Shown here: positions 31,817 through 33,539 of the stretch, one piece after another
How positions within the stretch are numbered: the first letter of the stretch is position 1
Layout: every line of letters begins with the position of its first letter
Assembly (NCBI RefSeq): GCF_037078405.1
Contig: NZ_JAYMGZ010000001.1
Coordinates: forward strand, 434,001-498,000
Length of the DNA: 64,000 bases
Direction: 5' to 3'
Source: Haloarcula sp. DT43
Lineage (GTDB): Archaea; Halobacteriota; Halobacteria; Halobacteriales; Haloarculaceae
Position numbers and translations under genes: made by a program
The notes under the pieces: generated by a model
What the model was told of the DNA's origin: nothing
Database searches by the model: none
Seen by the model: the letters and a program-made list of their open reading frames with translations, nothing else

Positions 31817-31888
31817 GGGCTCGTAGATCAGTGGCAGATCGCTTCCTTCGCAAGGAAGAGGCCCCGGGTTCAAATCCCGGCGAGTCCA
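31817..31888 (+). tRNA. tRNA-Ala (anticodon CGC)
   Basis: The acceptor stem GGGCTCG pairs with CGAGTCC and includes the G3:U70 wobble pair that is the alanine identity element. The anticodon arm CTTCC-TTCGCAA-GGAAG gives CGC. The T-arm CCGGGTTCAAATCCCGG is canonical and the discriminator is A. No intron and no encoded CCA. Confidence 0.97.
31872..31887 (+). repeat. tRNA-Ala 3'-end block, possible attachment site (left)
   Basis: These 16 bases end at the 3' acceptor strand of the tRNA. They match 33496-33511 at 14 of 16 positions, including the last ten bases CGGCGAGTCC exactly. The two copies bracket the lower-GC islet. Confidence 0.4.
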
Positions 31889-32423
31889 TCTGAAATTACC
31901 CTTCTTTCGAGGGTCTACGGTTTTCCTGTCTCTCACTCTGAGACGGTAAAGTTCGACTCGCCAGCCCCGGAACTATCACCTCGTCTGTCGAGAGTCCATG
32001 ACCGTTCGGGAGCCGCCCGCTCACCGTCTGGCAAATCGCGGAATGACCCGGATTCGGTTCCAGTCCGGGATGCTGGCACTGGCTCATGAGACGCTCATCG
32101 GCCGACTTGACGGCAACCGCGATTTCGGGGTTGACCCGCATCGGGACCCACTCGAAGCACAGTTTCGGAGCGTTTCGAGTGAAGCCCGGCACTCCAGATG
32201 ACCATAACAAAGAGAGAACAGTCGGAGTCGGGGTGCTGACGAACGAAGGATGGCCGACAAGGATTCCACAGTTCCCAGTCAGGTAAATTGAACAAATCGA
32301 GCACAACCGAATGACCAATAGCCGGCTCAGTCAAGGATCCCAAGGCCACCGTACGCGACATGGTTCGTGGCAGTGACTAATCTGGTAACAATCTATTTCT
32401 AGACATGCGCTCCAACTCGTCAT
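31889..32423. other. 535-bp non-coding, lower-GC stretch after tRNA-Ala
   Basis: No convincing gene. Short open frames on both strands lack coding character and have no promoter. An inverted repeat CCCGGA (32047-32052) / TCCGGG (32064-32069) encloses TTCGGTTCCAG and resembles a tRNA T-arm. Base composition drops toward 32400 compared with the genes on either side. It may be the non-coding part of an integrated element. Confidence 0.5.
32392..32399 (+). promoter_or_regulatory. TATA-like box of the 309-residue unknown protein
   Basis: CTATTTCT lies 25-32 bp before the ATG at 32424, within an AT-rich stretch, so the gene probably has its own leaderless promoter. Confidence 0.45.
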
Positions 32424-33353
32424 ATGTGGCTTGGTACCAGAGAACACATTGACGACCGTGCACCACTACGCACCTTGGATAAGACGTTCCCTGACTCATC
32501 GGCCTTTCAGAAAGCAGAGCCCCTTACGGTCAAAGTTCGGGGGGTCATGGCGAAGGAAAAACTCGACTTACTGTCTGACAACGACCTGATGGTCGCAACG
32601 AAGACGCAGTTCGGTAATGAACCGCCAGTCCAGCGTCTCCACTACTTCGCCCACAACGTCGAACCAGGTTGGGAAGGAGAGTTTTTCCACAGGACGATGC
32701 TGTCGGTCCGGGACCTCACCGACTCGTTACTGTCCCTCCGCGTACAGGTGTACGATATCGACGGCATCGACCCGAAGTACATCAAAACTGTCGGGGAACT
32801 TGCCCCCAAAGCCGCCGTGATGTTTCCGATCATCTCTCCGTACGCCGCATTGGCTGGACTCGCCGGCCCTCCGCTTGCTGCGCTCGTCAATAACATCGAC
32901 AATCACGAACCGATCGTCGACGAACGTGTCAACCTTGAGATGGCCGAATCGGGGACCGCCCGGAATCTGTTGCAGCCGGGCTACTTCGTCTGTTTCGACG
33001 GTCAGTCGCCGGCCAACCCGCACCTCAGATCCGATCTTCGGGTAACAGACGGGAATGGCGACGTCGTCGACCGGAACTACGCAGTTCTGGAAGTCAGTCG
33101 GAACCATCAGCAACGGCGCGAGTTCGAGATCAACTACAAGATCGCCAAACTCCTGGGGGAATTAGGTGGAAAGGGACAGACCACTCGTGATCCGATCCAC
33201 TACCTCGGTCCGACTCTCGAGGGGTACGACGCCTTCCGGAAACTACAGCGCGTGCAGGAACTGGAGGCGAAAGATGACCTGACAGACGCCGAGGCAAACC
33301 TGCTGACCGAACTGAAAGAGATCGAATCGATCAAGCCGTTCCTCACTGACTGA
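32424..33353 (+). CDS. unknown protein in a tRNA-Ala islet
   Basis: A 309-residue protein that I do not recognise. Residues 31-115 look like a beta-rich domain (AEPLTVKVRGV, EGEFFHRTMLSVRDLTDSLL, LRVQVYDID). Residues 129-156 form a hydrophobic, glycine/alanine-rich segment (KAAVMFPIISPYAALAG) that could be buried, amphipathic or membrane-active. A second beta-rich part has NLLQPGYFVCFDGQ and YAVLEVSRNHQQRREFEINY; the last 45 residues are helical and charged. No signal peptide. Codon use is less GC-biased than in neighbouring genes, suggesting transfer. It stands alone between tRNA-Ala and engB. Confidence 0.75.
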   Translation: MWLGTREHIDDRAPLRTLDKTFPDSSAFQKAEPLTVKVRGVMAKEKLDLLSDNDLMVATKTQFGNEPPVQRLHYFAHNVEPGWEGEFFHRTMLSVRDLTDSLLSLRVQVYDIDGIDPKYIKTVGELAPKAAVMFPIISPYAALAGLAGPPLAALVNNIDNHEPIVDERVNLEMAESGTARNLLQPGYFVCFDGQSPANPHLRSDLRVTDGNGDVVDRNYAVLEVSRNHQQRREFEINYKIAKLLGELGGKGQTTRDPIHYLGPTLEGYDAFRKLQRVQELEAKDDLTDAEANLLTELKEIESIKPFLTD

Positions 33354-33495
33354 CGAGGACATCCCGACGACGGTGAGGCGTTCACTCCTCTCGACGCGTC
33401 GCCCTCGTAGACACGCACCACGAAGCCGTGCAAAGGAACTTAGAAACACACCTCAAACCGTCGGAGGCGACGAGTACGGCGAGTCAGACAGTCAG

Positions 33496-33511
33496 AACTC
33501 TCGGCGAGTCC
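33496..33511 (+). repeat. copy of the tRNA-Ala 3' end, possible attachment site (right)
   Basis: Matches the tRNA-Ala end (31872-31887) at 14 of 16 bases, same orientation, with CGGCGAGTCC exact at 33502-33511. A shorter copy, CGGCGAGTC, lies at 33477-33485. Together with the tRNA it would bound an element of about 1.6 kb. Confidence 0.4.
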
Positions 33512-33539
33512 TTCGCAACACGCACGCTCTCTTGCCGTC

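What the first reader, a model, noticed from the sequence alone, without database searches (positions are those of the whole stretch)
32424..33353. Unrecognised 309-residue protein with beta-rich domains and a hydrophobic Gly/Ala-rich segment
The protein has a beta-rich N-terminal half, a 28-residue hydrophobic stretch (129-156) rich in Gly, Ala and Pro, a second beta-rich part (NLLQPGYFVCFDGQ) and a charged helical tail. It has no export signal, sits alone in a tRNA-bounded islet and has atypical codon use. A cytoplasmic protein with a potential membrane-inserting segment on a mobile islet could be a toxin or defence effector, but this is speculation.
Basis: inference. Interest (0 to 1): 0.6.

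Follow-up and report, generated by a model that had tools for sequence, protein, structure and literature searches.

The report
Mobile archaeal C2-like membrane-binding protein
A salt-loving archaeon carries, on a small inserted DNA islet beside a tRNA gene, a protein with the predicted shape and calcium-binding residues of a C2 domain (the calcium-triggered membrane clamp typical of animals and plants); its family is rare, has no name, and turns up sporadically in unrelated archaea and bacteria.

Summary
The 309-aa ORF (32424-33353) is a real gene of an unnamed family: no Pfam, NCBIfam, PADLOC or PHROG match, but full-length relatives (37-45% identity, dN/dS 0.11-0.22 between close pairs) in about 1-2% of haloarchaea, some Archaeoglobi, Desulfotomaculum-like Firmicutes and one Anaerolineae. 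Two AlphaFold models (window protein; bacterial relative) match almost only C2 domains in the PDB; a Hokovirus protein matches over its full length. Five acidic residues at the canonical C2 calcium-ligand positions (48, 54, 111, 113, 162) are kept in 18-19 of 19 relatives. A conserved helical tail follows. The gene sits on an AT-richer islet between tRNA-Ala and engB, closed by a degenerate copy of the tRNA 3' end; the site is empty or differently filled in relatives. Most likely a calcium-responsive peripheral membrane protein. Toxin or defence roles lack support: no conserved partner, one context near McrBC. In one genome it lies just downstream of a patatin phospholipase, like a split cPLA2. 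Function is inferred; no C2 sequence profile detects it.

The parts
31817..31888 (+). tRNA-Ala(CGC), left boundary and presumed integration target of the islet
31890..33514 (.). inserted islet, 56.8% GC against 67% for the window; absent from two congeners where engB follows the tRNA directly
32424..33353 (+). gene of the 309-aa C2-like protein P0001
32523..33098 (+). C2-like beta-sandwich, residues 34-225 (insertion included)
   Evidence: AlphaFold2 and Foldseek; relative
32556..32585 (+). calcium-binding loop 1, residues 45-54 (E45, D48, N53, D54 conserved)
32754..32921 (+). calcium-binding loop 3 with insertion, residues 111-166 (D111, D113 ... H161, D/E162, D166)
32808..32891 (+). hydrophobic segment, residues 129-156, inside the loop-3 insertion; FPxLxPYA-like core, P135 invariant
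33117..33317 (+). conserved C-terminal helices, residues 232-298 (K242, G249, K250, T264, Y268, R276, E279 invariant)
33496..33514 (+). imperfect (16/19) copy of the tRNA-Ala 3' end, presumed degenerate attachment site closing the islet

Best explanation
A peripheral membrane protein built on a C2-like domain. Shown here: the predicted fold, the conserved acidic pattern, the position of the insertion, the lone-gene spread and the mobile islet. Inferred: two loops at one end of the beta-sandwich (residues 45-54 and 111-166) hold Ca2+ through D48, D54, D111, D113 and D/E162; Ca2+ bridges the domain to anionic lipid headgroups; the enlarged, hydrophobic loop 3 (FPxLxPYA) then dips into the bilayer, as loop tips do in synaptotagmin and cPLA2 C2 domains; the conserved C-terminal helices bind a partner or oligomerise, so that the protein brings something to the membrane in response to calcium. 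It is an accessory gene that moves as a single unit.
For: Two independent models (pTM 0.80 and 0.74) retrieve C2 domains for 50/50 and 49/50 of the listed PDB matches, best E 3.5e-5, TM 0.56-0.61 to isolated E-Syt1 C2A. Acidic residues at 48, 54, 111, 113 and 162 are kept in 18, 18, 19, 19 and 18 (E in P0001) of 19 relatives and lie in the two loops that bind Ca2+ in C2 domains. VYDxD...HDxI resembles synaptotagmin VYDFDRFSKHDIIGE. The insertion lies in loop 3 and is poorly ordered in the model (pLDDT below 50), as expected of a flexible or membrane-contacting loop. Purifying selection. A lipase gene next to it in one genome.
Against: No sequence-level match to C2 profiles: nothing in Pfam, hhalign probability 1-2% against synaptotagmin/PKC C2 alignments, even with the insertion removed. 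Models rest on 14 sequences. Ligand geometry was not checked in coordinates. The hydrophobicity of the insertion is not constant in the family. No functional data.
Confidence: 0.6

Rival explanations
1. C2-like fold used for protein-protein contacts, without calcium or membrane binding: the loop-3 insertion is a helical cap that packs on the sandwich, and the conserved acids are structural.
For: Many C2 domains are Ca2+-independent (own knowledge; PMC8507603). Part of the insertion is modelled as helix and several relatives have it only mildly hydrophobic. The strongest conservation after the loops is in the C-terminal helices.
Against: All five ligand positions keep an acid in 18-19 of 19 sequences across two domains of life, more than a purely structural role would need.
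Confidence: 0.22
2. Anti-virus or abortive-infection effector (or toxin) that damages the membrane through its hydrophobic loop.
For: Patchy, horizontally spread lone gene in an integration hotspot; one relative 0.8 kb from an McrBC pair; the adjacent patatin in L019 matches PADLOC phospholipase effectors weakly.
Against: No PADLOC match; most contexts are housekeeping genes; no conserved partner, sensor or antitoxin; stably inherited as single copy with conserved sequence.
Confidence: 0.08
3. Accessory (targeting) subunit of a lipid-hydrolysing enzyme: a split version of cPLA2, with the patatin lipase encoded next to it or elsewhere.
For: In L019 the gene lies 122 bp downstream of a patatin gene with intact GTSTG and DGG motifs; C2 plus patatin-like lipase is the cPLA2 architecture (own knowledge); an alpha/beta hydrolase lies beside the gene in L022, on the other strand.
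Against: Only one genome shows the pair; no patatin was seen beside the other members.
Confidence: 0.1

Closest known systems
C2 domain superfamily (E-Syt C2A, PLC-delta1, PI3K, CAR4)
   Same: predicted beta-sandwich with best matches to C2 domains in both models; acids at the canonical Ca2+ positions in loops 1 and 3
   Different: about 45-residue insertion in loop 3; conserved C-terminal helices; N-terminal W-containing extension; no sequence-profile similarity to PF00168 or synaptotagmin/PKC; prokaryotic hosts
Hokovirus HKV1 uncharacterised protein A0A1V0SF49 (323 aa)
   Same: full-length structural match, E 2.4e-11, TM about 0.6, similar length
   Different: 12% identity; function unknown; from a giant virus of protists; only predicted structures compared
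Cytosolic phospholipase A2 (C2 domain plus patatin-like lipase)
   Same: C2-like domain; patatin lipase gene adjacent in one Anaerolineae genome; GIVD cPLA2 (5ixc) is among the fold matches
   Different: two separate genes, seen once only

Membership tests
C2 domain (fold superfamily) | eight-stranded C2-type beta-sandwich | tested here: met
   two predicted models, Foldseek E 3.5e-5 and 3.7e-4, prob 1.00, TM 0.56-0.61 by target to isolated C2; prediction, not a solved structure
C2 domain (Pfam PF00168) | sequence match to the family profile | tested here: not met
   no match in any of 14 members at E up to 10; none in the genome; hhalign 1-2%. Hence not filed as a PF00168 member
Ca2+-binding C2 domain | five acidic ligands in loops 1 and 3 | tested here: met
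   positions 48, 54, 111, 113, 162 acidic in 18-19 of 19; loops by DSSP of the model; 3D geometry not checked
Ca2+-binding C2 domain | binds Ca2+ and anionic lipid | not testable with these tools
   needs protein
Toxin-antitoxin system | conserved adjacent antitoxin | tested here: not met
   no conserved neighbour in about ten independent contexts
Known anti-phage defence system | match to a known defence family or consistent defence-island context | tested here: not met
   PADLOC none; McrBC near one copy only
tRNA-integrated mobile islet | empty site in relatives and repeat of the tRNA 3' end at the far boundary | tested here: met
   no integrase is left, so the islet is probably a remnant

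The most novel reading that the evidence does not exclude
A prokaryotic family of calcium-triggered C2 proteins with a membrane-inserting loop, exchanged between Archaea, Bacteria and giant viruses; it would be a calcium-responsive membrane-recruitment system in cells not thought to use one, and a candidate link to the origin or spread of C2 domains.
Probability: 0.25. Interest if true: 0.8.

Novelty: new variant of a known kind. Interest (0 to 1): 0.5.

Why it matters
C2 domains are regarded as a hallmark of eukaryotic calcium and membrane signalling (own knowledge). A stand-alone, horizontally moving prokaryotic C2-like family with all calcium-ligand positions acidic and a hydrophobic loop-3 insertion would be an unexpected calcium-to-membrane switch in archaea and bacteria, easy to test with purified protein. 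It would also give a meaning to genes that no current profile library names.

Tried and rejected
Profile libraries for P0001 (Pfam, NCBIfam, PADLOC, PHROGs): nothing. PDB by sequence: only weak myoglobin helix matches of E 0.08 or worse, judged chance. hhalign to C2 domains with and without the insertion: not significant. G291/L009, a 34% match over 68 residues with E 5.6e-4: a different protein, judged chance. Viral contigs (three scans), phages and plasmids: no relatives. The PKD-repeat protein downstream of the G283 copy as a general partner: absent from 16 other carriers. Transmembrane toxin reading: hydropathy not conserved. Literature searches for archaeal or prokaryotic C2 domains gave nothing on this family; the C2 classification by Zhang and Aravind 2010 is not held.

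Full report
What was checked. The ORF at 32424-33353 encodes 309 aa. The window comes from a haloarchaeon (EF-2, EF-1A, rpsJ and engB genes around it; acidic proteins, 67% GC; relatives in named Halobacteria). The gene is real: full-length relatives occur in 1-2% of sampled haloarchaea (2 of 146 in the family; 7 of 391 in the class, one of them the chance match L009; 5 of 392 in the order; each count includes this genome). They also occur in Archaeoglobi (4 of 59), in Firmicutes around Desulfotomaculum/Peptococcaceae (6 of 113), in one Anaerolineae genome (1 of 301 in its phylum) and in an archaeon MAG of unstated class (L010). Several of these are metagenome bins, so single assignments may be wrong, but the Firmicutes and Archaeoglobi groups each rest on several genomes. 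Close pairs show dN/dS 0.11-0.22. None was found among phages, plasmids or viral contigs. The copy in MAG QS_4_69_31 (L002/L023) has no ATG at the usual start and is frameshifted.

What it is. No profile library knows it. AlphaFold2 on a 14-sequence alignment gave pTM 0.80. Foldseek against the PDB listed C2 domains or C2-containing proteins for all 50 top ranks: plant E-Syt1 C2A (E 3.5e-5, TM 0.56 by target), PLC-delta1, PI3K, CAR4, cPLA2. A second model with the bacterial relative L014 as target (pTM 0.74) gave the same, with TM 0.61 to E-Syt1 C2A and one non-C2 entry among the 50. In the viral library a 323-aa Hokovirus protein matches over its full length (E 2.4e-11, TM about 0.6, 335 alignment columns), so its helical tail is probably shared too.

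Calcium site. In a family alignment of 19, D48 (18), D54 (18), D111 (19), D113 (19) and residue 162 (D in 18, E in P0001) are kept. They lie in the loop between strands 34-43 and 53-63 and in the loop between strands 102-111 and 163-172. These are the places of the ligand aspartates of synaptotagmin C2A (loop 1 LDMGGTSDPYV; loop 3 VYDFDRFSKHDIIGE; sequence checked, ligand roles from own knowledge). The family motif reads VYDxDG-[insertion]-HDxIxDE. Sequence-profile comparison does not support common descent with PF00168, so the claim is a C2-like fold and layout, not PF00168 membership.

The hydrophobic segment. Residues 129-156 are the middle of an insertion of about 45 residues in loop 3. 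Residues 128-148 are modelled at pLDDT below 50. The insertion has a conserved FPxLxPYA-like core and is borderline hydrophobic in P0001 (best 19-residue window 1.59), 0.70-1.73 across the family. A membrane-dipping loop is more likely than a spanning helix; this is inference.

Context. tRNA-Ala(CGC) is followed by engB at 168-192 bp in two congeners (empty site: L051, L045). In others the gap is filled by proviral-type genes (L081-L083, L086; PHROG matches for L081 and L082 proteins) or by other genes (L084, L085). Some congeners carry 35-37 bp near-exact copies of the tRNA 3' end 11-15 kb away (G018, G027), as expected for integrated elements. Integration of pleolipoviruses at tRNA-Ala is described in haloarchaea (PMC7911831). 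In the window a 16/19 copy of the tRNA 3' end at 33496-33514 closes a 1.6-kb islet (0 of 5000 shuffles). No integrase is left. Elsewhere the gene is not near tRNAs (0 of 11 family loci scanned) and has no conserved neighbour. Noteworthy single contexts: a patatin phospholipase upstream in L019, and in G283 a 1902-aa PKD-repeat protein 25 bp downstream plus McrBC upstream.

Tree. Halobacteria (support 90/91), Archaeoglobi (100/100) and a Firmicutes + Anaerolineae + L010 group (85/85) separate. With the patchy presence this fits a few old transfers between domains followed by local spread and loss; the direction is not resolved, and several branches are long.

How it most likely works. Shown: fold prediction, acidic pattern, position of the insertion, lone-gene spread, mobile islet. 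Inferred: Ca2+ binding at loops 1 and 3, docking on anionic lipids, insertion of the hydrophobic loop-3 element, and recruitment of a partner by the C-terminal helices. The main rivals are a Ca2+-independent protein-binding C2-like domain, a subunit of a lipase as in cPLA2, and a defence effector; the last two rest on single contexts.

Verdict. A C2-like, probably Ca2+-dependent peripheral membrane protein (confidence 0.6) on a mobile islet; toxin or defence roles are not supported beyond plausibility.

Noticed in passing
window 32086-32250 (islet upstream of the gene): Fragment 72-76% identical to DNA in other genomes of the family; in L090 it overlaps the end of a 106-aa ORF (TAISGLTRVGNHSKYGFGELRVKP) downstream of a 133-aa ORF that looks PIN-like. 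Here it looks like a decayed remnant, so the islet has held other genes.
   Followed up: partly
tRNA-Ala(CGC)/engB gap in congeners: L081-L086: Integration hotspot: pleolipovirus-type or other elements with PHROG matches in several congeners, empty in two.
   Followed up: partly
L079:8960-14668 (-): 1902-aa protein with many PKD domains, no obvious signal peptide and an unknown N-terminal domain, 25 bp downstream of the G283 C2-like gene; not found in 16 other carriers.
   Followed up: partly
L019:2034-3779 (+): Patatin phospholipase with GTSTG and DGG motifs and a long extra C-terminal part, directly upstream of the Anaerolineae C2-like gene.
   Followed up: partly
L016:8429-9670 (-): An OrfB/TnpB (IS605) gene lies next to the C2-like gene in Halorubrum salsamenti, a possible vehicle.
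   Followed up: no
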